This document shows, piece by piece, positions 1 to 38,811 of a stretch of 64,000 nucleotides of DNA (positions within the stretch are counted from its first letter, which is position 1; each line of letters starts with the position of its first letter). The position numbers and the translations under genes are program-made. The notes under the pieces are model-generated. The model worked only from the letters and a program-made list of their open reading frames with translations, was not told the DNA's origin and made no database searches. The DNA lies in contig JANFAH010000041.1 in assembly GCA_024663395.1 (NCBI GenBank), positions 1 through 64,000 of the forward strand, written 5' to 3'. Source of the stretch: Pisolithus tinctorius (Eukaryota; Basidiomycota; Agaricomycetes; Boletales; Pisolithaceae).

Positions 1-268
1 CAGGTCATTTAGGCTGGAGAATCCCCCAGGATACCCAGGAAATAGGTCTATTAACTCACTGGGGAAAGCCCCATTTGGACCCCAGGCACTCTGTTATAGA
101 TGTAATAATCCTGGAGAAAGTCCATGTCTGACACCTTGCTCTGGAGAATCTCCAGGGCCTGGCAAATCTCCAGCAGTCACTGGGAATACCCAGGTGGTCA
201 ACACCTATTAGGTGGATACATCTATAAGAATATATGAACCTAATAGGTCCCCTGGGGGGGGTGACTGA
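1..268. other. Unassigned sequence at left edge
   Basis: No convincing reading frame. The stretch contains short self-complementary motifs, such as CTGGAGAATCTCCAG near 140 and a 10-bp inverted repeat CCTATTAGGT / ACCTAATAGG at about 206-250. Homology to element A begins abruptly at about 269-272, so this is probably the end of another insertion that interrupted A-prime. I cannot name it. Confidence 0.4.
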
Positions 269-544
269 AGTGTTCCCTCCGCTTTCCTTCCGGTGATGTC
301 AATTCTGTTTCATTCTATGTTACTCTGTTGGATTCTTCTTGTTCGCTGGTATTAGGGACACAACTGGCTCACCTGCTTCAATCTGTCAATTGACTGGGTA
401 CTGGGCAGTATATCATTTAAACCACCGCTACAGGGAATGCCAATGCCCCAGGTGCCTCCATCACCCTCCACTGTGACCTCCACTCTGATCTGACACCCTC
501 TGCTCTGACTGCAGCTCTGACTGCAGCTCCAACCAACTTGCTGC
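269..544 (+). pseudogene. A-prime pol fragment: protease C-terminal part and linker
   Basis: The stretch reads like the segment just after the DSG protease motif of element A (its 12111-12290 region), including the SLVLG strand typical of retropepsins and the following proline/threonine-rich linker. An extra G in the GTATTAGGGACAC stretch shifts the frame relative to A, and stops follow. The catalytic DSG itself would lie upstream of position 269 and is absent. The fragment ends at the CTGC duplication that flanks D1. It is non-functional. Confidence 0.75.
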
Positions 545-2349
545 TGTCACACACCAAAGGTGTTTGGTGAGGTGGACATGGATGCAGCTGATGAATGGAG
601 ATGAAGACCATAGCCTCATGTGAAGGACAGCCAGAAATGTTGACAGTCATCCCTCACACAAGAACAAGTCGTCAGTGCCAAAGAAAAAGGAAGGAAGTGA
701 GTTAAGTGCTGATGAAAATTCTTAAGTGCCCATGTATGGCATTCTGGTTTTCAACATATCTCCACCATTTCTGCAGATAACGAAACCATTCCCACACTCG
801 CTTGTAGTGCTCAGCCACGCGATCCTACCTTCCAAAATTGGAAAGGATTTGTGCACTCCACATGTTTCTACAGCACTCCCTCCAAAAGACACTCATTTTG
901 CTAATTCTTCTGATATGGCTGCCTCCACATCAATCATTTCACTTGTCCCCATTGCTAGGGACCATGGCTATGTATATCTACCAGGAGTGCCTACCAGCTT
1001 CCATCCTGAAGCATCCTGGTACATCCCATCCTTGTCTGCCCCCTCTCAGCCCATCCAGCTTGGACAGTGTGTTCTTTTTGTCAGTATGACCTCTAGGAGG
1101 ACATTCTTGGTTGCCTCAGGTCTGTCATTTGCTTAGAAAGGTCTTATGTGGTTGTTTCAGTCTCTCCAGTCCAAGAAGCATATGGATCCTTCCTCCCTGC
1201 TCCCTGCAATGTCTTCATACCAGTCTCATCCATCATTCTTCCAAAATTGCAACAGCTACAGTATAATCTACTGTTCTCCACTCTCCCTGATCGCATCCAT
1301 GATGAGTATGATGCACATCTTGCCTCCTTATTGCAAGATACAACAGAAGACGCTCCCCCTTCATCCTCTCTTCCAACAGAGCCTCATTCATGAAGTTTTA
1401 CTTGCTTCACTGAGAGGACAGTTAAGGGGGGGAAAGTTGCGATCCCTTATGCTTCTGTCACCCCACAGACCCCCAAAGCTTGACCCCTGTTGACATCTGA
1501 CTCACCCTGTCCACTTTTGGATGTACTATATCGGCATCAGATCAGTGCTGCCTCTCTGTCATCCCACTTTGGCCCAGAGGCAATCTCTTCAAGATGTGAC
1601 ATGCACAGCCTCCCCCTAATGCAATTCCAGTGCGCTTTCCCAGTTCCTGACATTACTTGACTCATACTTTGACATTCTGACTGTCTTTGACTCACCTATT
1701 GCCAATACTTACCAATCTTTGACTTTGCTTACTGATTCTTCGCTTTTTGGCTTACTTATCCTTACCAATGCTCACCAATGCTTTCTAAGATGACTACCCA
1801 CCACTTACATTCCTTATTCATCAGTTACCAATCACTTACCAAGTGTTTGCACCTTGTTTTCCATAGGCAACACACCTGTACTGTATATAAATCACTGTAC
1901 TTAGATAGCAAAAAAAAAAGAAGACATCAGAGAGCCCCTCTTGCTCGCATTTTATCATCTCTCAGTAAATCATTCATCAGCCTTGATAGTTGAGACTTTA
2001 TTAAGGGTCTAACTATCATCTACTTTGCTTATCATTGTCTATCATCAATATACTTCACTCCAAGTCCTCCCTGAGCTCAGTGCAGCTCAGAGCATTGAAT
2101 TAAGTCGCCATCCATCCTTCTGTAGGCTGACAGCAGTCTACCCCATCGCATTCTATCACATTCCTGCCCCTTCTTCATCAGGAGCATCCCCAACCCTCAG
2201 CACTCATCTTTGAGTGTTGTAGCTTGCAAAAACCCTTCCCAATCAAAGGTTCCACCATCTAGGTACCACATAGGCGCACCACCACTCGCTTCATTGTCTT
2301 TTGTGTTGTTTTGGTTGCTTTCCACCACTGAACCTCACTTTGACTCACA
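545..2349 (+). mobile_element. D1: solo-LTR-like element with embedded ORF
   Basis: The element runs from TGTCACACACC to TTTGACTCACA, so it has canonical TG...CA ends, and it is flanked by CTGC (541-544 and 2350-2353). The uninterrupted site in element A reads CCGC. A TATA box (TATATAA, 1884-1890) lies about 460 bp before the right end, as expected of an LTR with a long U3. The first bases contain the hairpin ACACC-AAA-GGTGT. No internal retroelement domain is linked to it, so solo LTR is the best reading, although a small non-autonomous element cannot be excluded. Three more copies occur: D2, D3 and D4. Confidence 0.7.
726..1393 (+). pseudogene. LTR-embedded ORF of D family (copy D1)
   Basis: The same protein is readable in all four D copies. 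D1 encodes the N-terminal part from ATG 726 to about 1110. A 1-bp deletion (ACATTCTTGG versus ACATTCTTTGG in D3) shifts the rest into another frame, 1148-1393. Recognisable shared blocks are YVYLPGVPTSF, QLGQ-VL-VSMTSRR, RSYVVVSVSP and LPDRIHDEYD, with a Pro/Ser-rich end. I do not recognise the family. The ORF sits in the U3-like part, upstream of the TATA box. Its retention over decayed copies suggests it was once coding, perhaps a captured host or gag fragment. Confidence 0.5.
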
Positions 2350-2772
2350 CTGCACTCTGCTCCACTCATCTCACTCATCAATGCTGCTGCATATGTCAGA
2401 GCCTGTGCTCTCCCTGGCTCTAGACAGTTCCACTTGCAGCTCTCCACTGATGATGTGAAGCTTCATGCATCCTCTGCTTCCTCTCTGCCTCCTGACCTCT
2501 CCTTGGTCCCTCCTGAGTATCACGAGTTTGCCAATGTCTATAGGAAAGACAAGGCTACTAAACTTCCGCCACACTGCTCATTTGATCTCAAGATCAACCT
2601 TGAGGAAGGAGCCTCTCCGCCCATTGGCACAATCTACTCTCTTTCTCTGCCAGAGCTTGAAGCTCTCCACACCTTTGTTGATGAGCATCTTGACTATGGC
2701 TTCATCAAACAGTCCACCTCCACTCTCAGTGCCCCTGTCCTCTTCATAAAGAAGAAGGACAGTTCACTCTGC
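2350..2772 (+). pseudogene. A-prime pol fragment: RT N-terminal region
   Basis: The readable frame 2434-2770 matches the stretch between protease and RT fingers in element A: an LSTDDVKL linker, a [16 protein letters not shown] block, then the SLPELEALHTFVDEHL helix and the KKKD strand. The copy is interrupted by E at the CTGC site 2769-2772, exactly where A reads CCGC before LCVDYRGLN. It continues after E at 5678. Many CpG sites of A are TpG or CpA here. It is non-functional as it stands. Confidence 0.85.
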
Positions 2773-3236
2773 TGTGGGACACTACCTCTGGGTCACATGC
2801 AGATAGGGGAAGGCTGTAGGGGAAATCCCTAGGCTCGACCCAAGGGGTGCTGAGTAGGAAGGAGATGTAGAGTACAATGAAAGAGTCGGTTGAAGAGTCA
2901 AATGTAGAGCACAGAATTTAATTCCACAGAGTTGTAGGTAGGAATAGACTTTGCTTCTGAAATTCCAAGAGACAATCTTGACCCAACAAAGTAACTCCAA
3001 GACAAATTAGGCACACAGGAGAGAAAACAAGGAACTAGCAGATCAAAGACACAAAGACACAGAAGACACAGTAGATGCAAGTGATGCAAAGACACAGAGG
3101 ATGCAAGGGCACTTAGAACACCTTAGACTCACATATGACATGGATGGTGAGTCCCAAAGATGATTCTTTTTCGTCGCTAAGGCGGACTTATATAGTACAT
3201 GGATAGTAAGGTACTGATTGGAGAAATGTGGGGCAG

Positions 3237-5095
3237 TGTCACACACCAAAGGTGTTGTGGACATGGTTACAGCTGACTCTGCCTAACTTGTTGACGAGTT
3301 GTGCACAATGCCCAAGCATGCAGATGAAGACTAAAGGCCTCATGTGTAGAAAGACTGTCAGACGTTAACAGTTATCCTTCGCACAAGAACGAGTCATCAG
3401 TGCTAAAGAGAAAAGAGGAAGCAAGTTAAGTGCACATTAAAGGTTTTTAGCACCTGTGTATGGCATCCCGGTTTTCATCGTATCTCTGCCATTTCCAAAG
3501 ATATCAACTTGGTTGTCACACTCGCTTAAAGTGCTCAGCCCCACAATTCTTCCTTCCAAATTTGGAGAGGATCCTCGCACCCTGCGCATTTCTACAGCAC
3601 TCCATCCATCAGATGCTCACTTCGCTAAGTCCATCAATCATGGCCACCTCTTCGTCAATCATCTCACTTGTCTCATTTGCCAGAGACAGTGGCTACATAT
3701 ATCTGCCAGGCATTCCCACCAGCTTCTGTCCTGAAGCCCCCTGGTTCATCCTGTCATTGTCAGCCCCATCTCATCCCATGCAGCTTGGTCAGCATGTTCT
3801 CCTTGTCAGTATGACTTCCAGAAAGATGTTCTTTGGTCGCCTCAGGTCTGTCACTTGGTTAGAAAGGTCTTATGTGGTCGTTTCAGTCTCTCCAGTTGAT
3901 GAAGCATATGGATCATTCCTCCCTGCTCCCTGCACCGTCTTTGTTCCAGTCTCGTCCATCATTCTTCCTGCATTGTGACAGCTGCAGTATAATCTACTGT
4001 CCTCCAGCCTCCCTGATCACATTCATGACGAGTATGACATGCATCTTGCCTTCTTACTGCAGGATCCAGCAGAAGACATCCCCCCTTCTCCTCCTCCTCC
4101 ATCAGAGCCCCATTCATGAAGTTTTTGTTAACTTTGCTGAGAGGATGGAAGGGTGGGAGACGTGATCGCATATGCTCTCATTTCCCCACAGACCCCCAAC
4201 ACCCTAGCCCCCTTTGACACCTGACTCATGCCCTTCAATTCTGGAGTTAATACTTCCCTATCTGGAAACACTGTCCATCTGTCATGCTGTCTTTGGATCT
4301 AGAGATGTCTCCACCAAGATCTAACTTGCATCACCACCCCCTAATGTGATATCAGTGCACTTACTCAGTTTCTGATTCTATTGACTCATTTTGTGATATT
4401 TTGACTATCCCTGACTCATTCATTGCCAATACTTACCAATCTTCTTTGCTTGCTTACTTTTCATTTCTTGCTTACTCATCATGATTACTCAGTCCTTACT
4501 CATTACTTACCAAGTGTTTGTGCCTTGTTTGTCACAAGCTGTGCTCCCCCCTCAGTATATAAACCCCCATGTACTTAGCTACCAAGAAGCAATCAGAAGC
4601 CATTCACTCAGCAGTCAGTCAGTTCTTCAGTGCATAACTCATTGTCGACAGTTGAGGCTCATTCAGAAGAGTCTATCTGTCTCCATTCATATCATTGGTA
4701 GTTGAAGCTCCACGAAGGGGTCTATCTGCCTCCATCATTCATCTGAAGCTTTATCCCCACACTTAGTCAGCAAGTTTGCTTAGTCACCCATCCACTCCTG
4801 CATAACTCGTCAATGACTTGTGCCAGGAGCACGTTGTATCAAAGTCCATCATTCCAGAAGTCCTTTCGGCTGAACACCCCTGCTCTGTTCAGCATCCCCT
4901 TCTCAATCAGCATTCATTCATCCTCTCCTGTGTAACTCATCGATGACTTGCGCCAGGAGCACCCCTGCCATTGAAGTTTCCCCTCTTAGGTTTCTGCACT
5001 CCAGGTTCCACGGAGGCACACCACCACTTGCTTTACATTTGTCTTTTGTGTTGGTTTTGGTTGGTTTTCACCACCTTTCCACACTTTGACTCACA
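3237..5095 (+). mobile_element. D2: solo-LTR-like element inside E
   Basis: It is the second D copy, TGTCACACACC to TTTGACTCACA, 1859 bp, with a TATA box TATATAAA at 4556-4563. The flanks are GCAG (3233-3236) and GTGG (5096-5099). Both are one transition from GCGG, as expected if a GCGG duplication lost its CpG on different strands. It lies in E and is therefore younger than E. The ORF is described separately. Confidence 0.7.
3456..4120 (+). pseudogene. LTR-embedded ORF of D family (copy D2)
   Basis: Two overlapping frames (from 3456 and from 3460) carry the N-terminal and main parts of the D protein. The main frame is stopped by TGA at 3976-3978, where the D3 copy has CGA (ALRQLQ block), a CpG transition. 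Downstream the same frame continues to the Pro-rich end PSEPHS at about 4120. The intact middle includes SARDSGY-like and PAPCTVF blocks. The function is unknown; the family is not recognised. Confidence 0.5.
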
Positions 5096-5677
5096 GTGGG
5101 TAAAGCAAAATTCCGAAAAAACAAAGAGGGCGACATGTCAGACATCAAAGCCATACAGAATCATGTGAAGACAAACTGTTAAGTAGTAACCGAGAAAAAC
5201 AAATGGGAAAAGATGGGTATCTTCCAACAGGACAAGTGTACATCGTACCATGGAGTGCATGAAGGATAGAGGCCATAGATGCAAGGGGGTACTCACATTG
5301 CAGAGAAAGGTTCGCAGGAGAAGAGTGAGAGAGGTAACCAGAGTTTTTACTGATGATCTGTGTGATTTCCTGGCTACATGGCGAGGTGGAGGTTGAGGTG
5401 ACACGACTGCAGAATTCCAGATAGACATGTGTCAGGTTGATGTTGACACAGAATTCCAGGATGATGACTGGTGTGTGTTATTGATGGACAGGGGAGCTCT
5501 GAAGGTTCAATGGGTGAGGCAGTGCACGAGGCAGATGCACGAGGCAGATGCATGAGGCTGATGCAATAATTCCGAAGACAACAGATGTGGAACTTTGATA
5601 GGGGTCGACTTTGGTAACAGCAGAATTTTGGTGTTGGCATCCCTATTTTGGCCTCAGGGAGTATACTACTCCCTACA

Positions 5678-6524
5678 CTGCCTCTGCATAGGCTATCAAG
5701 GACTCAATAAAATCATGAAAAAAGATCGCTATTCACTGCTGCTCATCTCCAAGCTGCACCAAAGTCTACACAAAGATCGACCTCTGCCATGCCTATCATC
5801 TGGTCCACATCACAGACAGAGATGAATGGAAAACCACTTTCCACACTCATTATGGTTCTTATGAGTGGCAGGTAATGCCCTTCGGTTGGACAAATGCACC
5901 TGTGGCTTTTCAGCAATTCATTAATAGCATCTTTGCAGACATGCTCAATGTCTGCATCATGGTATACCTCGATGACGTCCTAGTTTATTCGCAGGACATG
6001 GAGTCGCACCGCAATCACATAAAAGAGGTACTCTGCCACCTTCAATAGCATGGTCTTTATGCCAAGTCAGAGAAGTGTGGGTTCCACTCTGACTCTGTCA
6101 AGTACCTTGGCTATATTCTCTCTCCCTCCAGTCTCACCATGTCTGCCAAGAAGGTTCAGGCAGTCCACAACTGGCCTGAGCTGCAGAAGGTGCAAGACAT
6201 CCAGTCTTTCCTCGGCTTCACAAATTTCTACAGACAATTCATTAATAACTACTCTGACATTGTCATTCCACTCACTCGCCTCACATGAAAGGGTGCTCCT
6301 TGGAACTTTTCCAAGGAATGCCACTCTGCTTTCCTCTGCCTGAAGGATGCCTTCAGCTCCACTCCTATTCTCACTCACTGGGTCCCTGACACTCTGCTTA
6401 CAGTTGAAACTGACACCTCCAACTATGCCATTGCTGGCATTTTGTTGCTCACCTGCTCTGACAGTGAACTCCACCCAGTCACTTTCTACTCCCATACCAT
6501 GACTGCACCAGAACTCAACTATGA
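5678..6524 (+). pseudogene. A-prime pol fragment: reverse transcriptase palm and start of RNase H
   Basis: This resumes A-prime after E. The sequence gives [13 protein letters not shown], then the catalytic YLDD box (about 5968, VYLDDVLVYSQ), the YAKSEKC and YLGYILS connection strands and the start of the RNase H fold (TVETDTSNYAIAG). There are several stops and indels. A TAG at 6046-6048 after HLQ is shared with element A at the same codon. The segment ends in ELNYD, where element A inserted and duplicated TATGA (6520-6524 and 14604-14608). Confidence 0.85.
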
Positions 6525-7238
6525 TGTCAAGTCTGGGCCTACTCTGACCAACTCCGATGCTTAATAAGGTCTAGAGGAGGGTCCAGAAGCAAGTCCAACA
6601 CACAGGGACAGAACTCCGACTAGCGGAGTGTTGGCAGGAACGAAGACTGCCGAGACAAAGGCGGAGTGGAGTGAGGGCGTCGGGTTTAGCTCGTGTGCTA
6701 CCCCCTTGCACGATCTCAGCCCTCGTATTTCAGAGGGAGAGTACAGAAGGAGAGTTGGAGATAGCTCTGACAGACAGAAGACAGAATCAGAGGGAGTAGG
6801 AACTAAGTTGATATTCATACTGAAGAACAGCAGAGTACAGTACATGCTTTTATACTGCTACAGAGGTACAGTAACTGGAATCGGAACTGACATACAGAGA
6901 CTCATAAATTTTCAAGTAAAATTTCCTGGATGACGAATGAAGGGTAGATGGAGGACATACGAATGGGTAACACAGAACATCTAGAAAAGGAAATAGTCCA
7001 GATGCTGGGCCATGTGGTGAGCACGCTGCAGAGTACCTGACTGTGAAGGTAGTCACATGATCCCTCAGAGAATGGACCGCTCGGTCCAGTAGGAGAGAAA
7101 CACAAGTCCGACAACAGTCGGAGCAGAGATGGTTTGTAGATGATAGAAGGTGGGCGGAGTTGGTGCGGAGTGAGCGAATGACCGGTGGAGAAGGTTGCAG
7201 AGTGAGTAAAGACCTATGATGAATGCACGGTTATGACA
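6525..7238 (-). repeat. Element A 3-prime LTR
   Basis: The LTR is 714 bp with TG...CA ends. Compared with 13891-14603, most differences are C/T or G/A at CpG sites, for example TCTGGGC versus TCCAGGC from an inferred TCCGGGC. Confidence 0.9.
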
Positions 7239-7252
7239 GTGCCCCCCCCTTA
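7239..7252 (-). other. Element A polypurine tract
   Basis: Read on the - strand, TAAGGGGGGGGCAC directly precedes the 3-prime LTR. This is the expected plus-strand DNA primer and fixes the orientation of the element. Confidence 0.75.
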
Positions 7253-7431
7253 GGGCCTGAACCCCTGAAGGCCATATGTACGGAACGAGATCAACACGAG
7301 TTGATCATTTGAAATTACTTTGATGCCTCGAGGATAATGGCTTTAGCTGTGGCGGAGCTCCGTCGGAGTTCGAAGTACTGCTTAAAAACACGTGTTAGGG
7401 TACTGAACCTTCGTCCTTTCTTCCCATCATC

Positions 7432-8643
7432 ATGCCTTCCCAGCGCCAGAGCAACACCCCCCAGCCAACCCCCGGCCACATCCGCGACTACTCTCAAGTC
7501 GCAGATGAAGAACTGGTCGTCCTTACTGATGACTCCACCGACACTGAGCGGGAGAAGTCCGCGGAGAAGGCGCGCCAACGAGAGGAGACCAAGCGGAGAG
7601 AGAGAGAACGTGAAGCAGAGCACAAGGCCAAGCATGAGGAGGCCAAGAGGCGGAAGGTGGAGGAGGAGAGGTTGGAGGCGGAGTGGAGGAAGAGAGCAGA
7701 GGAGGAAGAGGAGGCTCGAAGGAAGAAGGCGGCAGAGGAGGAGGCAGAAAGGCAGAGGCAAAGGGCCTCTGAAGAGAGGGCTCAGGCCAGGCAGGATGAG
7801 GCCGCACAAAGGTGAGTGGTGGAGTGCTGTGAGTCAGGCGGAGCTGACTTGCAGTCTTATTTTCTTAGATTATGCGGCGCGGTGTATGATGTCAACACCG
7901 CCCAGAGGGTCCCTGGGACCTCTGTGGTGGTTACCACGACCAGGCGGCCCCCCTGTACTCGCTGTGTAGCGAGCTTGACAGCGGGGCAAGGCAAGACCAG
8001 GGCTTGCCTGCCCTGTCACAAGAAAAAGAAGGTATGTAGCTGGATGAGGGAGGACGTGGTGGCAGGGCCATCACGGAAAAGAGCAGGAACAGGGAGCTCA
8101 CATGGGGAGAAGAAGAAGAGACCGTGAGGGAAGGGGAAGGAGAGGGCGATGGAGACGGAAGAGGCGGATGACAAGCGGGAGGCGGGCGGAGAAGAAGACG
8201 AGCCTGCGACACCGCTTGAGGGTCCCTCAGGGGCAGGAGTACACACGTGGTGGGTGGAGTGGGAGAGGGAGCGGCAGCTGCAGGCCATGGAGAAGCAGGC
8301 TGAAGCGCACGAGACCGCTGTGCTGGCCTTTGAGAGGATGGCAGAGGCAGCGGAGCGGATGGCGGTGGCCACAGAGCAGACAGCCAACGAGTGGGCGCTG
8401 TACCGCACCTGGGCAGAGTGGGTGGAGATGAGGAGGAGGGAGGATGCATGAGAAGCCAGGATGGCCGAGCTCGAGCGCACAGGCAGAGGATGGAAGAGGC
8501 CTCAGTCGGAGGCGGCGGAAGACAAGAACGAAGAAGCGGATGAAGGTGCGGAGGGGGATAACGAGGAAGAGGAAGAAGTCAGAGGAGAGAAGGAAGGCGG
8601 AGAAGAACAGGAGGGTGGTGGAGGACAAGCGATGGAAGAGTAG
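7432..8643 (+). CDS. Antisense accessory gene of element A: charged coiled-coil and Cys-cluster protein, spliced
   Basis: The gene lies on the strand opposite to gag-pol, between integrase and the 3-prime LTR. Exon 1 is 7432-7811 and exon 2 is 7869-8643. The 57-nt intron starts GTGAGT, has CTGAC at about 7844 and ends TTCTTAG; removing it keeps the frame. About 384 codons result. Residues about 40-126 are almost pure Glu/Lys/Arg/Ala heptad-like helix, a likely coiled coil. Exon 2 has a Cys cluster, CTRC followed by CLPCHKKKKVC, possibly zinc-binding, then a second helical segment (MEKQAEAHETA, EWALYRTWAEW) and an acidic C-terminus. Two in-frame TGA codons (8125-8127, 8449-8451) are each explained by CGA mutation. 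The role is unknown; related fragments sit at 17009-17302 and 46723-47088 in two other elements. Confidence 0.7.
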
Positions 8644-8842
8644 AGTTGTTTTGTTTTGTTTTTCTTTTTTCTTTTTTTTTTTGTCTTTAGTTTGTATATT
8701 TTGTATTACTACGAGATAGACTTGTGATTTTGTTTGTGACTCTGAGAAGTGAAACGGATAAGCGGAGAAAATTCTAAAGTACTTAAGGTAGTTCGGTAAG
8801 AGGTGGAGTTGGCCTGCGGAGGAGGTTTATGTAGGCGGAGTA

Positions 8843-10465
8843 TTATGGCGGAGGTTGGTATGGGCCAGGTTTGTGTGGATAGCATTCATGGAAGGCGGAT
8901 ACTATGTTGGAAGCGTGATCTAGCTCAGTTGCAAGCAACCAAGAGGTTTCTTCGTCAGTGTTCTCATAACCAGCCCAGCGGACTAGATACAAGAGTTGAC
9001 AGTGGCGGCGATGGCGGTCCACCTTAGAGTCGAGTATCTCTGATACTTTGTACTCAAGGTCACCGTCGACATCCACTGGCGGAGGCAGAGGTTGTTGTCG
9101 GTTTGGGAAAGGGTTAGCTGCTGTGGCTTCCAGTTGTGAGACATGGAAGACCGGATGTACTGAGCGCATAGAGTCAGGGAGCTTAAGGGTGACAGAATGC
9201 ATACCTGGCCTGGCCAGGATGGTGAACAGACCTAAGTACTTTTCAGAGAGTTTTTCTGAAGGACGAGTGGAGCAGAAGTACTTGGCTTTGACGTAGGCCT
9301 GTTCTCCGACCTTGAACTCAGGCGGAGGTATGTGTTTAGCATCTGCTGGACCCTGGTAGTGCTGTTGAGTGGCAGACATTTCGGAGCGGAGGAAGTCATG
9401 AAGGGCGGAGAGTTCAACGACGTAGTCGTGAGCCCTTGGAGAGGTGAAGTCTTGGTCAGGGACCACAGACAAGTTTGGATGGTATCCCTTGTTAGCGAAG
9501 AAGGGAGAAACTCCAGTAGTCGCACTTGGCGCGTTGTTGAAAGTGAACTCCGCTAGAGGTAACAGCTCAGCCCAGTTGTCTTGTTGGTAGTTACAGTAGA
9601 CACGAAGGTACTGTTCAAGGGTCTGGTTCGTTCGCTCGGTCTGGCCATTGCCTTCTGGGTGGTAACCCGAAGTGAAGTGAAGATGCATATCAAGGGCCTT
9701 TCCTAAAGAGCAGAAGAAGTGTGAGATGAACTCAGGACCTCTGTCGGAGGTGACATTAGCTGGTACTCCGTGTTTGGAGAAGACATGGGTAAGGAAGAGC
9801 TTAGCGAGTTCGGCGGAGGTGACGGAGTCGTGGGTGGGGATGAACACTGCTTGCTTTGAGAGGCGATCCACTACCACGAGTATGGCAGAGTAGCCATCGG
9901 AGTTGGGGAGGTGTTCAATGAAGTCCATGGAGATGGAGTTCCAAGGTCTCTCTGGGACAGGGAGTTGCTTCAGTAGACCATAAGGGCGGTGACATGGAGT
10001 TTTGCTCTGTCCACAGGCAGTGCAAGACCTGACATATTCTTTCATGTCGGAGCGGAGGTTAGGCCACATGTAGTCCCTGCGGACAAGTTCTAGGGTGTGG
10101 TTTTGCCCGAAATGGCCTGCTAGAGGATGATCATGCTTGAACCGAAGCACTCGAAGGCGGAGGTCATCAATGTCAGGGACAAAGATACGACCATCAAGGT
10201 GGAGTAGACCGTCGGAGTCCAGGGACCACTGAGGCTTAGTCGGAGTTGGGAGATGGCTGGCGGAAACAGGGTCGGAGGGTAGGGTGGAGATGATGTCAGA
10301 GTGCAAGCACTCAACATCGAAGACCATGGCGGCACAGAGCACAGGTGCCATGAGGGTGGTGGTACGGAGGGATGACGTGAGTTGCTCCTGTGTAAACATA
10401 GGGCGGAGATTGTGAGGATTTACCTGCGCATAGTCCCTATCCCCCCTTTTGGGTAGACATCCCAA
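8843..10465 (-). CDS. pol: Element A integrase with chromodomain (pol C-terminal half)
   Basis: The 540-codon open frame encodes the integrase part of the polyprotein. It has the zinc-binding HHCC module (HDHPLAGHFGQNH followed by CTACGQSK), the catalytic core with Asp in SMDFIEHLP, Asp in TSDRGPEF and the downstream Glu region, a GPY/F-like segment, and at the end a chromodomain (YKVSEILDSK, LVRWAGY, ETSWLL). The chromodomain places the element among chromoviruses and would target chromatin. The frame is joined to RNase H upstream but shifted by a 1-bp loss in a G tract near 10441 (six G where A-prime has seven), so the apparent start is not a real start codon. Everything within the frame is intact. 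Confidence 0.92.
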   Translation of the reverse strand: MGCLPKRGDRDYAQVNPHNLRPMFTQEQLTSSLRTTTLMAPVLCAAMVFDVECLHSDIISTLPSDPVSASHLPTPTKPQWSLDSDGLLHLDGRIFVPDIDDLRLRVLRFKHDHPLAGHFGQNHTLELVRRDYMWPNLRSDMKEYVRSCTACGQSKTPCHRPYGLLKQLPVPERPWNSISMDFIEHLPNSDGYSAILVVVDRLSKQAVFIPTHDSVTSAELAKLFLTHVFSKHGVPANVTSDRGPEFISHFFCSLGKALDMHLHFTSGYHPEGNGQTERTNQTLEQYLRVYCNYQQDNWAELLPLAEFTFNNAPSATTGVSPFFANKGYHPNLSVVPDQDFTSPRAHDYVVELSALHDFLRSEMSATQQHYQGPADAKHIPPPEFKVGEQAYVKAKYFCSTRPSEKLSEKYLGLFTILARPGMHSVTLKLPDSMRSVHPVFHVSQLEATAANPFPNRQQPLPPPVDVDGDLEYKVSEILDSKVDRHRRHCQLLYLVRWAGYENTDEETSWLLATELDHASNIVSAFHECYPHKPGPYQPPP

Positions 10466-11181
10466 CGTCGCATAAGTGCGTCGGGTTTGGCTCCTAAGTG
10501 GCCAGGTCGGAAGCGGATGGAAAGATTAAACTGGGAAAGGTACTCCGACCAGCGGGCCTGTCGACGGGTGAGAACCTTAGAGGTGGAAAAATACTCAAGG
10601 TTTTTGTGGTCCGTCACCATGTCGACAGGTAAGGCAGAGCCTTCTAAGTAATGCTGCCAATGGTGGAAGGCCTCAAAGATAGCCAACAGCTCTTTGTTGT
10701 GGGTATCATAGTTGAGTTCTGGTGTGGTCATGGTGCAAGAGTAGAAAGCGACTGGGCGGAGTTCACTGTCGGAGCAGGTGATTGACAAAATGCCAGCAAT
10801 GGCATAGTCGGAGGCATCAGTTTCCACTGTAAGCAGAGCATCAGGGACCCAATGAGTGAGAACAGGAGCGGAGCTGAAGGCATTTTTCAGGCGGAGGAAA
10901 GCGGAGTGGCACTCCTCAGAAAAGTTCCAAGGAGCACCCTTTCGCATGAGGCGAGTGAGTGGAACGATGATGTCGGAGTAGTTATTAATGAATCATCTAT
11001 AGAAATTTGTGAAACCAAGGAAAGACTGGATGTCTCGCACCTTCCGCAGCTCAGGCCAGTCGCGGACTGCCTGAACCTTCTCAGCGGACATGGTGAGACC
11101 GGAGGGAGAAAGAACATAACCGAGGTACTCGACAGAGTCGGAGTGAAACTCGCACTTCTCTGGCTTGGCATAGAGGCCATG
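10420..11181 (-). pseudogene. pol: Element A RT connection and RNase H
   Basis: This continues pol after the TAG at 11182-11184: YAKPEKCEFHSDS, the NFYR connection with an in-frame TGA near 11000 (CGA in a functional copy), then from 10947 the RNase H fold with TVETDASDYAIAG, ELNYDTHNKELLAI and TDHKNLEYF, the usual D-E-D landmarks. The frame ends at 10420 because of the G-tract deletion that separates it from integrase. It would act as part of the reverse transcriptase to remove the RNA template. It is broken in this copy by two stops and one frameshift. Confidence 0.85.
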
Positions 11182-12561
11182 CTATTGAAGGTGGCAGAGT
11201 ACCTCTTTTATGTGTTCGCGATGCGACTCCATGTCCTGCGAATAGATTAGGATGTCATCGAGGTATACTATGACGCAGACATTGAGCATGTCTGCAAAGA
11301 TGCTATTGACGAATCGCTGGAAAGCTGCAGGCACGTTAGTCAGACCGAATGGCATTACCTGCCACTCGTAAGAACCATAACGAGTGCGGAAAGCCGTTTT
11401 CCATTCATCTCCATCCACTATGTGGACTAGATGATAGGCATGGTGGAGATCAATCTTGGTGTAGACTTTAGTGCGGCTTGGAGAGTTGAGTAGGTCGGAG
11501 ATGAGTGGCAGCAGATAGCGATCTTTTTTCATGATTTTGTTGAGTCCTCGGTAGTCTACGCAGAGGCGGAGTGAACCGTCCTTCTTCTTTACAAAGAGGA
11601 CAGGGGCACCGTGAGCGGAGGTGGACTGTTTGATGAAACCATAGCCAAGATGCTCGTCAATGAAGGTGCGGAGAGCTTCAAGCTCTGGTGGAGAAAGAGA
11701 GTAGATTGTACCAATGGGCGGAGAAGCTCCTTCCTCGAGGTCAATCTTGAGATCGAACGAGCAGTGTGGTGGAAGTTCAGTGGCCTTGTCTTTACTAAAG
11801 ACATCGGCAAACTTGTGATACTCAGAAGGAACCGAGGAGAGGTCAGGGGGTGGAGATGAAGCGGAGGACGCACGAAGCTTCACATCATCAGTGGAGAGCT
11901 GTAAGCAGAACTGTCTAGAGCCAGGGAGAGCACAGGCTCTGACATACACAGCAGCATTGATGAGTGAGACGAGCGGAGCAGAGTGCGGTGAGTCTGTCGG
12001 AGGTGCAGTCAGAGCTGCAAACAGAGTGGAGGGTGTCGGATCCAGAGCGGAGGTCGCAGTGGAAGATGATGAAGGCGCCTGGGGTGTTGGCATTCCCTGT
12101 AATGATGGTTTGAACGATATACTGCCCAGTACCCAGTCAATCGACGGATTGAAGCGGGTGAGCCAGTTGTGTCCTAATACCAGCGAACATGAAGAATCCA
12201 ACAGAGTAACATAAAATGAAACGGAGTTGACATCGCCGGAAGGAAAGCGGAGGGAAAGATCTACTTCTTGGGAAATGACAGCATTTGTACTACCATCAAA
12301 CAAGCGGAGCAGAACTGGTGGAGAAACAGAGGAAACAGGAATGGCATATTTTTTGATTACAGACGGGTCTACGAAGCAATGAGAAGAACCAGAATCGATC
12401 AACGCAGAAAAAGTGTCAACAGAATAATCCGGAAGAGTTACAGATGGAAGTAAAGAATTGGGACTAGAAAGAGCAGACACATTGAGTCGGATGTCCGGTT
12501 GCGCACAGTTGGTATCAACGCTTCCTCCAGGCTGTGCAAGCTCCCTGGAGGAGCGGACTAA
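11182..12561 (-). pseudogene. pol: Element A protease and reverse transcriptase (pol N-terminal half)
   Basis: The frame opens at the end of gag in the -1 frame. The aspartic protease site is [12 protein letters not shown], followed by the SLVLGHNWL strand. RT follows with [29 protein letters not shown] and the catalytic box [11 protein letters not shown], about 250 residues in order. There is no separate start codon, so expression must come from frameshifting off gag. The frame stops with TAG at 11182-11184 (HLQ then stop). The same stop exists in A-prime, so it is either inherited from a shared defective parent or tolerated. Confidence 0.88.
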
Positions 12562-12567
12562 TTTTTT
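12558..12567 (-). promoter_or_regulatory. Putative -1 ribosomal frameshift site at gag-pol junction
   Basis: The - strand reads A AAA AAT TAG in the gag frame, so the slippery heptamer sits directly before the gag stop. Slipping back one base continues as AAA TTA GTC CGC into the open pol frame, which has no start codon of its own. Frame arithmetic confirms pol is -1 to gag. A-rich heptamers are known -1 slippery sites; a downstream stimulator was not assessed. Confidence 0.6.
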
Positions 12568-13829
12568 GGCTCTGCCTTCTCCTCAGTCGGAGTAGGCGGA
12601 GTTCCAGCCATAGCTGCATGGGATTTGGCTGCACGAGAGGTGGACTTGGGACAGTCCTTGGCGGAGTGGCCAGCCTCGCCACAGAAGAGACAGAGGTTGT
12701 TTTTCATCCTGCGCTGTCGTTCAGCAGAGGTGAGTTTGCCATCCTTGCCCAGAAGATGGGCAATATCGGACTTGGGCAGATCTTTCTGTTTGCCCTTGCC
12801 CTTGGCATCGGACTTTGGAGTGGAGGACGAGGAGGACGACGATTTAGCTTTATTGTCGGAGTTGGAAGACTGCGACTTGTCGGAGGCGGACTTGGTGGTG
12901 TGTGAGATCTCTGCTTTGCACTCCCAGTAGTGCGCATCAATGGTCTGAGTGAGTTCGCGGAGTTGTGCAAGGGTAGAAGGTTTTCTGATGCAAGCGATCT
13001 CGTCCTTGATGCGGTCTGGAAGTCCACTATAGAAGCGGTGGCAGAGTGCACCGACACCGTAGTCCTTGACCTGTGAAGCCCAGCGATTGAACTCCATGAC
13101 GTATTTAGTAATTCAAGACCCATCTTTCATGGTTAGGTTCTCGAGTTGTTGGACGGCATCTGCTATGGCATCATGTGGACCGAAGTTGGATGTGAGCTCT
13201 TGTAAGAACTCATGATAGTCGTCCATCCAGAGTGGGCGGTCATAGTTGTCGGGGTTTAGTAGATCTGGCTCGAACCAAGCCAGAGCCATGCCCTTAAGAT
13301 AAGATTGAGCAAAGGTAACCTTTGCTCTGTTGGAGCGGAATGCGCGAGGGCGGTCTTGGAAGTTTAGCTCGCATTGTACGAGGAACTCACGGAGTTTCTT
13401 GGGGTCGGAGCCATCGAAGGTATCAGGCTCGCGGACTTTGGTTTTCGGAGCGGAGTCCCCAGTGTGCGAACTAGACCATGCAAGCGCATGAACGGCTCTA
13501 GCAAGAGCTACGAGGGGATCCTCTGGCGTCTCAGCCAGGTCTTCGGGGACATCCCTGTCACCGCTGCCCCTGCCATTGGGATCACCATCAGGATAGTCAG
13601 GGTCGGGGTCGGGTCCATCATCTCGGTTACAAGGAGACGGAGTATGGAAAGTTGTTGGGTGGAGGTCGGAGCGACCAGCTTGCGAAGCGCTTTCGCCTTC
13701 AGTGCGAGAGCGGTGTCGAGCAGAGAAAGACTGGAATTGTTCAACGACGGAAGGGAGTTGACGCGGATTAGCTAGCGCTACAGTGAGGTTCTCAGCGACC
13801 TCTCTCTGGGATTGAGCTCAAGTTCTCAT
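12558..13829 (-). pseudogene. gag: Element A Gag with CCHC knuckle
   Basis: The frame begins at ATG 13829, about 60 nt inside the 5-prime LTR. It has a disordered N-terminus, a retrotransposon Gag capsid-like domain (PDTFDGSDPKKLREF, LKGMALAWFEPDLL, ELTSNFGP), a Ser/Lys-rich linker, and a nucleic-acid-binding knuckle CLFCGEAGHSAKDC near the end. It stops with TAG 12558-12560. Two in-frame TGA codons interrupt it, one at codon 4 and one near 13107. The first is CGA-type decay and the second probably replaced TGG. The 12558-13097 part is open. It would form the virus-like particle shell. Confidence 0.85.
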
Positions 13830-13890
13830 AATGGCGTAAGTTTTTCGGAGGACAGAAAATGAGATCGTACAAGTGCGAGTACAAATATAC

Positions 13891-14603
13891 TGTCAAGTCC
13901 AGGCCTACTCCGACCAACTCCGACGCTTAATAAGGTCTAGAGGAGGGTCCGGAAGCAAGTCCAACACACAGGGACAGAACTCCGACTAGCGGAGTGTCGG
14001 CAGGAACGAAGACCACTGAGACAAAGGCGGAGCGGAGTGAGGGCATCGGGTTTAGCTTGTGCGCTACCCCCTTGCACGATCTCAGCCCTCGTATTTCAGA
14101 GGGAGAGTACAGAAGGAGAGTTGGAGATAGCTCCGACAGACAGAAGACAGAATCAGAGGGAGTAGGAACTAAGTTGATATTCATACTGAAGAACAGCAGA
14201 GTACAGTACATGCTTTTATACCGCTACGGAGGTACAGTAACTGGAATCGGAACTGACATACGGAGACTCATAAATTTTCAAGTAAAATTTCCTGGAGATG
14301 AATGAAGGGCAGACAGAGGACATACGAACAGGTAACACAGAACATCTAGAAAAGGAAATAGTCCAGATGCTGGGCCATGCGGTGAGCGCGCTGCAGAGTA
14401 CCTGACTGTGAAGGTAGTCACATGACCCCTCAGAGAACAGACTGCTTGGTCCGGTAGGAGAGAAACACAAGTCTGACAACAGTCGGAGCGGAGATGGTTC
14501 GTAGATGATAGAAGGTGGGCAGAGTTGGTGCGGAGTGAGCAAATGACCAGTGGAGAAGGTTGCGGAGTGAGTAAAGACCTATGACGAACGCACGGTTATG
14601 ACA
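13891..14603 (-). repeat. Element A 5-prime LTR
   Basis: The LTR is 713 bp with TG...CA ends and pairs with 6525-7238. The flanking TATGA at 14604-14608 matches 6520-6524. Confidence 0.9.
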
Positions 14604-17008: not shown

Positions 17009-17302
17009 CTACTCTTCCATTGCCTGCTCTCTGCCACCCTCCTGTTCTTCACCACCTTCCTGCTCCCCTTCAACTTCTTCCTCATTATCCCCCTCTGCAC
17101 CTTCGTCTGCTTCCTCATTTTTGTCCTCCGCCACCTCCGACTGAGGCCTCTTCCATCCTCCTCCTGTGCGCTCGAACTTGGCCATCTTGGCCTTGCACAT
17201 GTCATCCCTCCTTGCCTCCACCCACTCTGCCCATGTGCAGTACAGTCCCCACTCATTGGCTGTCTGCTCTGTGTCCTCTGCCATCCGCTCTGCTGCTGCC
17301 AC
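17009..17302 (-). pseudogene. A-prime antisense accessory gene, C-terminal fragment
   Basis: Antisense to A-prime pol, the 97-codon frame matches the C-terminal third of the antisense gene of element A: ERMAEDTEQTANEWGLY, TWAEWVEAR, GGGWKRPQSE and the acidic tail ending QAMEE then stop. The rest of the gene is cut away at 17302 where D4 begins. The position downstream of the chromodomain and the opposite strand are the same as in element A, so the gene belongs to the family and is not private to one copy. Confidence 0.75.
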
Positions 17303-23679: not shown

Positions 23680-25161
23680 TCAGTTCTCTGAGCCTTTGGT
23701 GTATACTATGTTCGCGTCAAAGCACGACATATAATCTATCCACCAGACCTGTTGGCTTGACAGTTTTCGTTGGGTTTTGAGGTATCCCAGGGCCTCATGA
23801 TCTGTCACTATCATGAACTTAAACCTGAGGAGTTTATCCTCCCATTTTAGTAAGGCTTCAATTATTGTGAGGGTCTCTCGCTCAAAGGTCCTATAGTTTT
23901 GTTGGGCATCGCTCAGTTTTTTTGACATGAAACCTGCTGGTTGGCAGGTCTTCCATTTGGGTCCTTGCCTGTACAGTGCACCCACTCCATAGAGTGATGC
24001 ATTGCAGATGAGCCATACTGGCTCTTCCTTCTTTGGATCTATTGGCCACAGTACTGGGTATTTGCAAGCCAGGTCCTTAATCATCTGGAAGCATCGGTCG
24101 TGGATTTCCCTCCACAGGAACGGATGTCCATTCCTTTGTATCCCAGTTAGTGGCGTCGTGCACACTGAAATATCTGGCATAAACTGTGCCAGGTACTCTA
24201 CAAGGCCAACGAATTGTTGAACCTCGTTGAGTGACTTAGGTACTCTCCAGTTCCTAATTCGAGACATCTTGTCTCTATCTGCATGCATGCCCTTGGCATT
24301 GATTATGTGCCCAAGGCAGTCGAGTTTCTCAGCATATAAGTCGCACTTCTCTCTTTCGAGGAAGAAGTTGGCCTGACACAGTGTTTCAAACACTATCTGG
24401 AGGTGCTGCTTGTGCTCCTCCAGTGTATCACTGTAGATGAATATATCATCAAGACAGATGTATACAAAACATCCTATGTGATCTCTAAAGATCACAGTCA
24501 TAAGGCATTGAAACGTCGCAGGGGCATTACAATCCCCCTGCTGCATGACTTGGCTTATAAAAGTGCTGTAAATCATTGAGAAGGCTGTCTTCCAGACATC
24601 TTCAGGCTCGATGCATACCTGTTTGTACGCATTCGACAAGTCGATCTTTGAGCGATACTTTGCTCTCGCAATGTCCATCCTGATCTGATCCTGATCAGGG
24701 AAGGGAGTTACATCCCTTATTGTATTTTCATTTCTTTTATGACAGTCAATGACTGTTTGTAGTTTGCCATTCTTTTTTGGTATACACAGCATGGGTGTGG
24801 CTTGTGGGATGCTTTTTAGCACCCACCACTCCATGTCTGTGTACTGACGGATTTTATCCGACAACTGTTGCTTTAGTGTGTCAGTGCAACGAGGCAAGTG
24901 GTATGAGTACCGCTTGTCCTCATTGATCAGGGGAATCCTGTGGTTTACCTCCCGTAAAGGAGGTAATTTCGGATCGACACCTTCGAACCTTCATCTAAAC
25001 TTTTCGAACCATCACTCCCTTAGGCGAGGTATATCTTTGTCCCCCAGTGTTCTTTTTTGTATTGGTTTTATTACTGCGAGTGTAGGCTCGCTTTTCAACT
25101 CTAACTGCCCTCCCCCCAGCAAGCCCTCATGAGGCTGTGACAGCCTTGCAGGGCATGCTAG
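23680..25161 (-). pseudogene. B-outer reverse transcriptase and RNase H
   Basis: The frame from 24897 to 23680 is open for 405 codons. It holds CIPKKNGKLQTVID, SKIDLSNAYKQV, the catalytic box YICLDDIFIYSD, LYAEKLDCLGHI, and the RNase H segment VWLICNASLYGVGALY and IVTDHEALGYLKTQRKLS. The Y-x-DD box reads C-L-D-D here where B2 has Y-L-D-D, and the first RNase H Asp (CDAS in B2) reads CNAS, so two catalytic positions look altered. The region 24900-25161 gives the linker ahead of RT. Confidence 0.85.
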
Positions 25162-26786
25162 TCATTTGTTCGAGGAGGAGCTGGCTTTAGGGAGGCATGA
25201 GTGCCCCTCTCTGGCGACCTCAGGCTCCGTGAGCATGAGGACCTTTTCGCCTGCAATCGTCATCAACTTTTCAGCGAAGTTGAGCACCACTTTGTGCTGC
25301 CTAAGGAATGGGATTCCTAGAATACAGTTGTAGCAATCGTTATTAGCCACATCAAAATAACAGCTGTTCTGTTGGTGGCCCATCTTTATCATGAAGAGTC
25401 CTCCATGTGTAATTTTCGATTGGCTACCTCTGCAGCCCAATTGCAGCGTAAGCTGCTGATCGAGCGGAAACACTTTCATCTTCGTGACCTTGGCGAAAGC
25501 TGGGCTCACAAAGTTTCCAGTGCTTCCAGTGTCGATCATTGTGTAGGCTTTACAGCCGTTTATGATGGTGTCTACTGTTACACACATGCGCAATTCTGGT
25601 GTGATTTGCAGGCGGGTTCCCGCTTCCTGCTTAGTATGCATTGCATACTGAAAAGCACGTGTCAGTGGCTTTGCTATCAGTTGCAAATCCATTGCAGCCA
25701 TACGTGGGTTATCGTGGATGCGATGTCCCTCAATGATTATATCTCCATGTGGTGTTTCCACCACCATATCGTTGGGGTATATCCTGACTTTGTTGTTATT
25801 TGGGTTAGGCCGACTTATGCGACACTCAGTTGCACAGAGCTGATCATATAGCTCCCCAGGAATATCATTCCTGGTCGGCGCAGTTGTGCGCAAGCGTTGG
25901 ATATCACACAACACTTGTACCCATTGTGCTTCGAGGGACCTGATGTGATTAGCCATCGTATGTATTGCACACTGAATGCGATCGGTGTTCATACCGTGCC
26001 CCTCCATTTGGGCACAGTCGCAGTCTTCCCAGCCCCTATTGTACTCGTGGAACGTGAGTTGCGCAGGGAACTGCAGTGCGATGGTGAGCGAGGTATTCTC
26101 CTCAGCTATGGCCTCGTCAATGTGTTCCCTGCATTGTTGGCATTTGGGGCAATGCTCGGAGTGAGTAGCTCCATAAACCGGTGACCAAGTCCAGGTCCCA
26201 CCTGTGATTTCAGGATGTTCTGCTTGACGAGGGTCTAGACCATCTCATCTTCATTTATTCTGAGCGATGCACTTCTTACTATATCGTCCTCTTCTCGGGA
26301 GGTAGGCAGGTGTTCTACCGTCCCATCTCTATTTATCCACACCATTCCCCATGGTGTTTCGATGACCAATGTGTCCAGATATATTTGGACATTAGGGGTC
26401 ATTACGCTCTGCAATTGTAGATTGATCATAGCGTTCCACAAGGGCTCATCCAAGGTTAATTGGGGTTGAGCTGCATGACACATGCCTTCGCGTGCTATCG
26501 ATATTTCTCGAAGGGCATCCCTTCGATGTCCTTCCATACACCGGAGATGATATGCTAGTAGGTGAAGGGCCATCCTAGTGCACCACACACTAAGATTTGG
26601 TGTCTCCATCGGAGCATGCCTTCCATCCTCCCTACCCCTTTTGTATTCCTGTCATGCATGATTCTCGTTATTCACAAGAACCCTGACCAGAGATGGATTA
26701 CCGTTTAGTAGCCCTTCAGCTACGTGATCCACTCAGTGGCTACACTCATCACACGTGAACTCATGTACAGCTCCGTATAGGTCCGA
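25162..26786 (-). pseudogene. B-outer pol N-terminal region with aspartic protease
   Basis: The frame 25162-26007 carries the protease: MIDTGSTGNFVSPAF, and NCILGIPFLRQHKVVLNF as the C-terminal strand. Upstream, 26235-26609 holds a duplicated helical/strand unit (MALHLLAYHLRCMEGHRRD, QIYLDTLVIETPWG). The element breaks off at 26786 at the TCCGA site used by B2. A TGA ends the frame at 25162 (after SSSNK) at the same place as in B2. Confidence 0.8.
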
Positions 26787-26983
26787 TGTAAGGTTGTAGT
26801 GGAATTGCCTCAAGCTCACATGCGCGAAGTGTACCGTATGGTATTCGCACAGTAAGACATAGAGACAAAAAAGATTCTCTCTAAAATTTTCGAGGCAATA
26901 CTTATATACGAGGAGGCATGTGATACCGAGGTATCACATGCCCATACTAAGTAGCTACTATATTCGGGGTATAACCCCTAACA
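26787..26983 (-). repeat. B2 3-prime LTR
   Basis: The LTR is 197 bp. On the - strand it starts TGTTAGGGGTTATACCCC, with a GGGGT-TAT-ACCCC hairpin. A PPT-like purine run GCAGGGGAGGG adjoins at 26984-26995. Confidence 0.92.
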
Positions 26984-32012: not shown

Positions 32013-32015
32013 TTT

Positions 32016-38809: not shown

Positions 38810-38811
38810 GT

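What the first reader, a model, noticed from the sequence alone, without database searches (positions are those of the whole stretch)
7432..8643. Spliced antisense gene carried inside a Ty3/gypsy chromovirus
Seen: a 384-codon reading on the strand opposite gag-pol, with a clean 57-nt intron (GTGAGT, CTGAC, TTCTTAG) whose removal keeps the frame. It has a coiled-coil N-terminus and a Cys cluster (CTRC / CLPCHKKKKVC). An intron cannot survive in an LTR element if it is on the genomic RNA strand, because it would be spliced out; the antisense position avoids this, so the gene must be transcribed from its own promoter. Both stops are CGA-to-TGA decay. Some plant gypsy elements carry antisense ORFs; I know of no described fungal counterpart with this protein.
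Basis: partly seen in the sequence, partly recalled or inferred. Interest (0 to 1): 0.85.

Follow-up and report, generated by a model that had tools for sequence, protein, structure and literature searches.

The report
Spliced antisense gene in fungal retrotransposon
A jumping element of the mushroom Pisolithus tinctorius carries, backwards to its own genes, an extra gene with an intron that natural selection keeps intact, much like the backwards regulatory gene of a human retrovirus, but with a protein for which no described family was found.

Summary
Confirmed and extended. The window lies in a 92.5 Mb Pisolithus tinctorius genome. A complete chromovirus (6525-14603, minus strand, 5-bp target-site duplication) carries, between integrase and 3' LTR and on the opposite strand, a two-exon gene (7432-7811, 7869-8643; 57-nt GT-AG intron). 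The window copy is dead: two in-frame stops and a 15-nt deletion that removes one Cys. Of 67 other copies examined, 23 keep a whole spliced reading (382-404 aa). Their introns are 54-78 nt, in all three classes modulo 3, with exon 1 always in one phase; keeping the intron truncates all 23. The nonsynonymous/synonymous ratio is 0.23 of a mutation-matched neutral expectation (integrase, 18 of these copies: 0.20). 39 of 60 GenBank models place the same junction. Whole copies encode a long charged helix, a six-Cys zinc-cluster-like motif, a basic stretch, a second helix and an acidic tail. Relatives: Pisolithus orientalis and, weakly, Scleroderma citrinum. Most likely a nuclear DNA-binding accessory protein, antisense and spliced as HTLV-1 HBZ is; this role is inferred and no transcript was seen. 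Antisense genes are known in plant elements and fungal Boty; this is a new variant.

The parts
6525..14603 (-). complete Ty3/gypsy chromovirus with 5-bp target-site duplication TATGA, inserted in the RNase H part of an older related gypsy element
   Evidence: LTR ends and flanks; domains; the flanks match the RT-RNase H and integrase stretches of this element (arms I3, I7, I1, I5)
13891..14603 (-). 5' LTR
   Evidence: 713 aligned sites, 40 transitions, 0 transversions, 94.4% identical to the 3' LTR
13113..13817 (-). gag capsid (DUF4939 above cut-off; Ty3_capsid and Retrotrans_gag below cut-off)
12558..13112 (-). zinc-knuckle part of gag
   Evidence: zf-CCHC
11182..12582 (-). protease and reverse transcriptase
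   Evidence: RVP_2, RVT_1
10420..10992 (-). RNase H
8843..10525 (-). integrase with chromodomain
   Evidence: Integrase_H2C2, rve, SH3_Tf2-1, Chromo
6525..7238 (-). 3' LTR; with the leader the likely site of antisense initiation (inferred)
7239..7431 (+). leader between 3' LTR and antisense ATG
7289..7306 (.). inverted repeat GATCAAC-ACGA-GTTGATC; found near -143 from the ATG, with up to 2 mismatches, in 63 of 64 modelled copies
7432..7811 (+). exon 1: short N-terminal motif and long charged helix
7812..7868 (+). 57-nt intron, GTGAGT...CTGAC...TTAG
7869..8643 (+). exon 2: Cys motif, basic linker, second long helix, acidic tail; two in-frame stops in this copy
7954..8037 (+). Cys motif; five of the six Cys of whole copies
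17009..17296 (-). remnant of exon 2 (81.6% identical), at the matching place of the older related element

Best explanation
The locus is a dead copy of a genuine accessory gene carried by a chromovirus family of Pisolithus tinctorius. SHOWN from sequence: a two-exon antisense gene sits between integrase and 3' LTR in nearly all copies whose flanks were held, its intron has to be removed for the frame to read through, and its protein is under purifying selection about as strong as that on integrase. INFERRED: an antisense transcript starts in the 3' LTR or the leader, is spliced by the host spliceosome and exported; because the splice signals face away from the genomic RNA, the intron passes through reverse transcription unharmed. 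The roughly 390-aa product most likely dimerises through its long helices, enters the nucleus through its basic stretch, and binds DNA or chromatin of the element through a zinc-cluster-like six-Cys motif. There it tunes LTR transcription or the silent state of the element, as HBZ does for HTLV-1.
For: Whole spliced reading in 23 of 67 copies; intron retention truncates 23 of 23; intron lengths 54-78 nt in all three residue classes mod 3 with exon 1 always 2 mod 3; CTGAC in 64 of 64 modelled introns. N/S 0.23 of neutral, bootstrap 0.19-0.28, lowest in the Cys part (0.17) and C-terminal helix (0.18); integrase 0.20 against 0.22 for this gene in the same 18 copies. Stop-creating differences across 28 copies 0.27 of expected, the lowest of six frames. 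LTR match upstream in 29 of 29 copies and integrase downstream in 24 of 29; integrase on the opposite strand in 39 of 40 further loci; 180-217 nt between the two stop codons in 21 of 23. Same junction in 39 of 60 GenBank models. Six Cys in 21 of 23 whole copies; the six Cys columns 0.96-1.0 conserved. 318 places carry the Cys-motif DNA against 5 for the reversed control. The same Cys motif in Scleroderma citrinum P0084/P0085. Predicted long helices at residues 35-120 and 236-317 of P0006.
Against: No transcript data. Zinc binding, DNA binding, dimerisation and nuclear entry are untested; the basic stretch is my reading of the sequence. The Pfam zinc-cluster match is far below cut-off and covers only the second half of the motif (E 0.4 and 7.1); the Cys region of the model has pLDDT about 44-56. 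A reverse-strand frame that shares the wobble position gives almost the same N/S ratio (0.36 against 0.34 in five intact copies, 0.40 against 0.35 in 28), so the choice of frame rests on discordant sites and stops. Stop-creating differences are also reduced in two other frames (0.45 and 0.47). In one intact copy, L021, a second forward frame is open for 408 codons (155-178 in the other four), though its N/S ratio is 2.1.
Confidence: 0.6

Rival explanations
1. The antisense RNA, not a protein, is what matters: a spliced antisense long noncoding RNA that pairs with the genomic RNA and feeds RNA interference or dampens copy number.
For: Spliced antisense noncoding RNAs of transposons, including Ty3/mdg4 elements, are reported in the fungus Blumeria hordei (PMC10648671, passages). 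Here too the transcript would overlap the 3' end of the sense RNA.
Against: Noncoding RNA does not predict a ratio of 0.23 in one frame, frame-keeping through varying intron lengths, or conserved Cys and Trp columns. It may act in addition.
Confidence: 0.07
2. The protein acts in the particle or the pre-integration complex (RNA chaperone, nuclear import or integration factor) rather than as a regulator of transcription or silencing.
For: The Cys motif and basic stretch would also suit RNA binding; nuclear roles of this sort are proposed for plant antisense ORFs (PMC7264820).
Against: Antisense expression uncoupled from gag-pol is an awkward way to make a particle component (inference). No direct test was possible.
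Confidence: 0.25
3. The region is constrained through an overlapping sense-strand reading or sense RNA signals, and the antisense frame is a shadow of that.
For: The reverse frame sharing the wobble position shows an N/S ratio of 0.36-0.40 of neutral. In five close copies the intron is less diverged than third positions (0.049 against 0.150).
Against: In five intact copies, sites synonymous in the antisense frame only are 2.4 times expected against 1.5 for the reverse only; in 28 copies 1.62 against 0.93. Stop-creating differences over 28 copies are 0.27 of expected in the antisense frame and 0.89 in that reverse frame. The longest reverse open stretch per intact copy is 161-260 codons, in three different frames.
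Confidence: 0.03
4. A passenger: a captured host gene, or a nested element, multiplied by hitch-hiking without function for the element.
For: Intron-bearing genes are typical of hosts; capture by LTR elements is known (PMC7264820).
Against: The hits found by three capped protein searches are copies of this family or Sclerodermatineae relatives; constraint equals that of integrase across diverged copies; same place in the element.
Confidence: 0.05

Closest known systems
HBZ of HTLV-1 (antisense bZIP gene)
   Same: Antisense gene near the 3' LTR of a reverse-transcribing element; transcripts start in the 3' LTR and are spliced (PMC1459196, title in the search listing only).
   Different: Retrovirus, not a fungal chromovirus. 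HBZ is a bZIP; this protein has a six-Cys motif and two long helices. Initiation and splicing here are inferred.
brtn, antisense gene of Boty-like elements (Botrytis cinerea, Zhao et al. 2011)
   Same: Fungal Ty3/gypsy element with gag, pol and chromodomain and an antisense gene between pol and 3' LTR (PMC7264820 parts 1-2 of 3 read; passages of PMC8365987 and PMC4227169).
   Different: Ascomycete. The original paper was not held, so protein similarity, introns and selection could not be compared.
Plant antisense aORFs: Grande gene23, RIRE2, Retand (TRP28), PvRetro13
   Same: [quoted passage not shown] Grande's product is nuclear and transcribed from its own promoter (PMC7264820; PMC11963269 passages).
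   Different: Other proteins (TRP28, SMC-like). The word 'intron' does not occur in the Retand paper's main text.
Spliced TE-antisense lncRNAs of Blumeria hordei
   Same: Fungal transposons, gypsy-type among them, with spliced antisense transcripts (PMC10648671, passages).
   Different: Reported as noncoding; here the reading frame is under selection.
Antisense homing-endonuclease genes with spliceosomal introns in mobile group I introns
   Same: Antisense, intron-bearing protein gene inside a mobile element (PMC9548176, search listing only).
   Different: Not a reverse-transcribing element; a nuclease gene.
Fungal Zn(II)2Cys6 transcription factors (PF00172)
   Same: Six Cys in two CxxC-containing halves; second half C-x2-C-x6-C; basic residues between.
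   Different: First half is C-x2-C-x8-C (x9 in Scleroderma) rather than the recalled x6; Pfam match far below cut-off.

Membership tests
Ty3/gypsy chromovirus (carrier element) | LTRs, target-site duplication, gag, PR-RT-RH-INT order, chromodomain | tested here: met
[quoted passage not shown]
Antisense accessory ORF between pol and 3' LTR (aORF-3R) | protein under purifying selection | tested here: met
Antisense accessory ORF between pol and 3' LTR (aORF-3R) | antisense transcript exists | not testable with these tools
   no RNA data; GenBank gene models only
Fungal Zn2Cys6 cluster (PF00172) | Pfam match above the curated cut-off | tested here: not met
   E 0.4 on the Cys piece and 7.1 for the first member of A1; 11.3 and 7.3 bits against a cut-off of 21
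Fungal Zn2Cys6 cluster (PF00172) | six Cys in two halves (spacing rule recalled) | tested here: inconclusive
   six Cys in 21 of 23 whole copies, first half longer than the recalled rule
HBZ | bZIP domain | tested here: not met
   no Pfam family at E up to 10 for the whole 389-aa protein of L021
brtn of Boty | homologous protein | not tested

The most novel reading that the evidence does not exclude
The antisense protein is an element-encoded anti-silencing or master regulator that recognises CGG-containing sites which the element has accumulated along its whole length. In the window element CGGAG/CTCCG is 1.7 to 7.5 times over dinucleotide expectation in LTR, leader, pol, gag and, weakest, this gene, and not in window 1-6500 or 20000-64000; it holds 11% of all CpGs in the loci of whole copies, 15.5% in their LTRs and a third in the intron. 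An inverted repeat GATCAAC-N4-GTTGATC in the leader would be an autoregulatory operator. This would be a fungal counterpart of plant VANC-type anti-silencing proteins (recalled), made by a spliced antisense gene.
Probability: 0.13. Interest if true: 0.85.

Novelty: new variant of a known kind. Interest (0 to 1): 0.66.

Why it matters
Antisense accessory genes in LTR elements have been known for years with no firm function assigned. This family gives a tractable case: about 300 places in one genome, many whole reading frames, selection as strong as on integrase, a compact Cys motif with candidate DNA sites, and an intron whose removal reports antisense expression directly. It also suggests that the HBZ design (antisense, spliced) arose independently in a fungal chromovirus, and that dozens of 'hypothetical proteins' in the Pisolithus proteome are transposon genes.

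Tried and rejected
Tried with little or no result. PDB sequence search: best E 0.12 and 0.034, no convincing relative. Pfam: no family above cut-off for this protein. Viral contigs: 75 pattern matches, none confirmed. Structure: mean pLDDT 64.9, pTM 0.32; only the two long helices are confident, so no fold search was run. Spacing of CCG/CGG pairs in one LTR plus leader (L072): both orientations are raised (15 against 5.6 expected, 12 against 5.6), no single spacing stands out. Protection of CGGAG from decay: rejected, CpGs in that context are lost in other copies as often as others (0.67 against 0.64). The first splice predictor, which took the longest reading, chose wrong starts and was replaced by a homology-guided one. 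One search failed through a script error and was repeated; the first copy alignment had unturned minus-strand loci and was redone.

Considered and rejected: chance reading, host passenger gene, sense-strand constraint, RNA-only function as the sole role (see rivals). Zn2Cys6 membership is not claimed.

Limits. The 67 copies are not a random sample: 27 are the best DNA matches to the window's exon 2 (L002 and L003, near-duplicates of the window copy at contig ends, left out), and 40 are the best remaining matches to a Scleroderma protein, which favours intact exon 2. N/S ratios come from pairwise comparisons that are not independent; the bootstrap (40 rounds) resamples codons with 60 random pairs per round. 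The integrase control leaves out 5 of the 23 whole copies (4 with a stop inside the integrase stretch, 1 too short). The distance table leaves out L021 and L063. Acceptors were chosen within 15 nt of the exon-2 homology, preferring strong donors and then in-frame joins. Junctions were recognised by a motif; 4 of its 43 hits join a few residues away and are not counted as the same. The protein searches were capped at about 8,000 scored candidates. The CGGAG control stretch 1-6500 is decayed, CpG-poor gypsy sequence, part of it from the older related element. Dating of other copies by LTR pairs could not be done.

Full report
WHAT WAS CLAIMED. A reading of about 384 codons opposite to gag-pol in a gypsy chromovirus, with a 57-nt intron, a coiled coil and a Cys cluster.

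CHECK. The reading is exactly there: exon 1 7432-7811, intron 7812-7868, exon 2 7869-8643, two in-frame stops. The element's two LTRs (6525-7238 and 13891-14603) differ by 40 transitions and no transversions over 713 aligned sites, which fits CpG decay, and a 5-bp duplication TATGA flanks the element. Pfam finds gag, zinc knuckle, protease, RT, RNase H, integrase and a chromodomain on the minus strand. The flanks match the RT-RNase H stretch on the left and RNase H to integrase on the right, so this element sits inside an older related one in the opposite orientation, and that older one keeps an 81.6% identical remnant of exon 2 at 17296-17009.

HOST. The window is contig C41, 1-64000, of a 92.5 Mb assembly. 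All 60 relatives listed by the first protein search carry the name Pisolithus tinctorius (about 8,000 best candidates scored), an ectomycorrhizal (recalled) Boletales fungus (lineage). A published survey reports chromovirus expansion in Boletales with large genomes (PMC5689174, passages).

COPIES. A DNA search scored 40 of 325 candidates, all 40 matching. With minus-strand loci turned, 5 of 29 fetched copies keep the whole spliced frame. In the enlarged set of 67 copies (L004-L030 and L043-L082), 64 could be modelled and 23 are whole, 382-404 aa (24 by the script's cut-off, L015 dropped as truncated; L063 has a different C-terminus). A 17-base Cys-motif pattern with up to 2 mismatches occurs 318 times genome-wide against 5 for the reversed control. 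An LTR match, partial in some, lies upstream in 29 of 29 copies and an integrase match downstream in 24 of 29 (two of the five misses are contig ends); integrase lies on the opposite strand in 39 of 40 further loci. In the 23 whole copies the stop codons of this gene and of integrase are 180-217 nt apart in 21 (64 and 423 in the others).

THE INTRON. In the 23 whole copies the intron is 54, 55, 57, 58, 75, 76, 77 or 78 nt; lengths fall in classes 0, 1 and 2 modulo 3 (7, 15 and 1 copies), yet exon 1 is always 2 modulo 3. Keeping the intron truncates the reading in 23 of 23. The donor is GTGAGT in 56 and GTAAGT in 4 of 64 modelled copies, and CTGAC occurs in 64 of 64. Gene models in GenBank place the same junction in 39 of 60 proteins and one a few residues away in 4. 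On the genomic RNA strand the intron reads CT...AC and cannot be removed by the standard GT-AG rule, so it survives retrotransposition (inference from established splicing rules).

SELECTION. Each observed difference was compared with the same base change, in the same CpG or non-CpG context, placed anywhere in the same sequence. The five intact copies of the first alignment gave an N/S ratio 0.34 of neutral in the true frame and 1.6-2.1 in the other forward frames. One reverse frame that shares the wobble position gave 0.36; the other two gave 1.7 and 1.9. Sites that separate the two low frames favour the antisense one: synonymous-only-there sites are 2.4 times expected against 1.5 for the reverse (five copies) and 1.62 against 0.93 (28 copies). 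Stop-creating differences over 28 copies are 0.27 of expected in the antisense frame and 0.89 in that reverse frame; the other four frames gave 0.45, 0.47, 0.70 and 1.02, so stop depletion alone is not specific. In L021 a second forward frame happens to be open for 408 codons, against 155-178 in the other four intact copies. In 23 whole copies the ratio is 0.227 (codon bootstrap 0.188-0.281), lowest in the Cys part (0.168) and C-terminal helix (0.179), highest in the acidic tail (0.416). In 18 copies with an open integrase end the ratio is 0.197 for integrase and 0.223 for this gene. Against a simple picture, the intron is less diverged than third positions in the five close copies (0.049 against 0.150), though more diverged than the exons in 21 copies (0.192 against about 0.12).

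PROTEIN. Whole copies share an N-terminal motif, a long charged helix, C-x2-C-x8-C-x9-C-x2-C-x6-C in 21 of 23, a basic linker, a second helix with invariant Trp, and an acidic tail. AlphaFold on P0006 with 28 relatives gives confident helices at 35-120 and 236-317 only. A profile search (capped) added Pisolithus orientalis P0072 (E 7e-34) and two Scleroderma citrinum proteins at weak E (0.024 and 0.95). Profile alignment supports these two (hhalign probability about 96%, single comparisons), and they have C-x2-C-x9-C-x10-C-x2-C-x6-C-x-W. Searching the genome with P0085 returned 107 places at E up to 0.1, best 3.8e-8. No Pfam family is matched above its cut-off.

CIS FEATURES. The leader carries GATCAAC-ACGA-GTTGATC, with up to 2 mismatches, near -143 in 63 of 64 modelled copies; mean identity of its arms is 0.997 against 0.940 for other non-CpG leader sites (63 copies). 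CGGAG/CTCCG in the window element, observed against expected: LTR 7 and 1.2, leader 3 and 0.4, integrase 21 and 3.5, RT 12 and 2.7, gag 13 and 3.6, antisense gene 9 and 5.2; at 1-6500 3 and 3.3, at 20000-64000 43 and 60.5. In the loci of whole copies 11% of CpGs are in this context, 15.5% in the LTR stretch, 33% in the intron, against 2.8% for the same three bases after a G that is not in a CpG. These sites are not protected from decay. CGG as the half-site of Zn2Cys6 factors is recalled, not tested.

MOSAICISM. Among 21 whole copies pairwise distances of exon 1 and exon 2 correlate at only 0.29, exon 1 with integrase at 0.19, exon 2 with integrase at 0.47, while exon 1 and intron correlate at 0.76; mean distance is about 0.12 for the exons and 0.05 for integrase. 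This suggests recombination between subfamilies (inference).

LITERATURE. [quoted passage not shown] passages of PMC8365987 and PMC4227169; Retand, passages of PMC11963269). Spliced antisense noncoding transcripts of transposons, Ty3/mdg4 elements among them, are known in Blumeria (passages of PMC10648671). HBZ transcripts start in the 3' LTR and are spliced (PMC1459196, title in the search listing). The listings of searches (titles and starts of abstracts; 59 and 69 list 12 of 38 and 12 of 16 papers) show no spliced antisense protein gene in a fungal LTR element; subscription papers, including the brtn paper, are not held.

VERDICT. A real, selected, spliced antisense gene (my confidence about 0.95 for that part). 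A regulatory DNA- or chromatin-binding role is the best guess (about 0.45-0.5 alone). New variant of a known kind.

Noticed in passing
window 7289-7306: Inverted repeat GATCAAC-ACGA-GTTGATC at a nearly fixed distance from the antisense ATG in 63 of 64 modelled copies, arms nearly invariant; possible operator or signal for second-strand synthesis.
   Followed up: partly
window 6525-14603 and loci of whole copies: CGGAG/CTCCG enriched 1.7 to 7.5 fold over dinucleotide expectation across the element, in coding and noncoding parts, but not in window 1-6500 (decayed gypsy sequence) or 20000-64000.
   Followed up: partly
21 whole copies among L004-L082: Exon 1, exon 2, LTR and integrase distances are poorly correlated between copies, as if subfamilies exchange pieces; the exons of the antisense gene are more than twice as diverged as integrase.
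   Followed up: partly
L002 and L003 (ends of contigs C168 and C73): About 97-100% identical to the window element's LTR, leader and exons, ending at contig ends; probably alternative assemblies or haplotypes of the same locus.
   Followed up: no
window 23680-40664: Further gypsy elements on the minus strand with protease, RT, RNase H, integrase and chromodomain matches and a below-cut-off capsid match, including adjoining long open frames at 30078-34463; DNA search with both exons found no copy of the antisense gene there.
   Followed up: no
GenBank proteins P0001-P0083: 82 of the 83 proteins P0001-P0083 are labelled hypothetical proteins of Pisolithus tinctorius and by similarity belong to this transposon gene family; the other, P0072, is from P. 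orientalis. Their own genomic places were not checked.
   Followed up: partly
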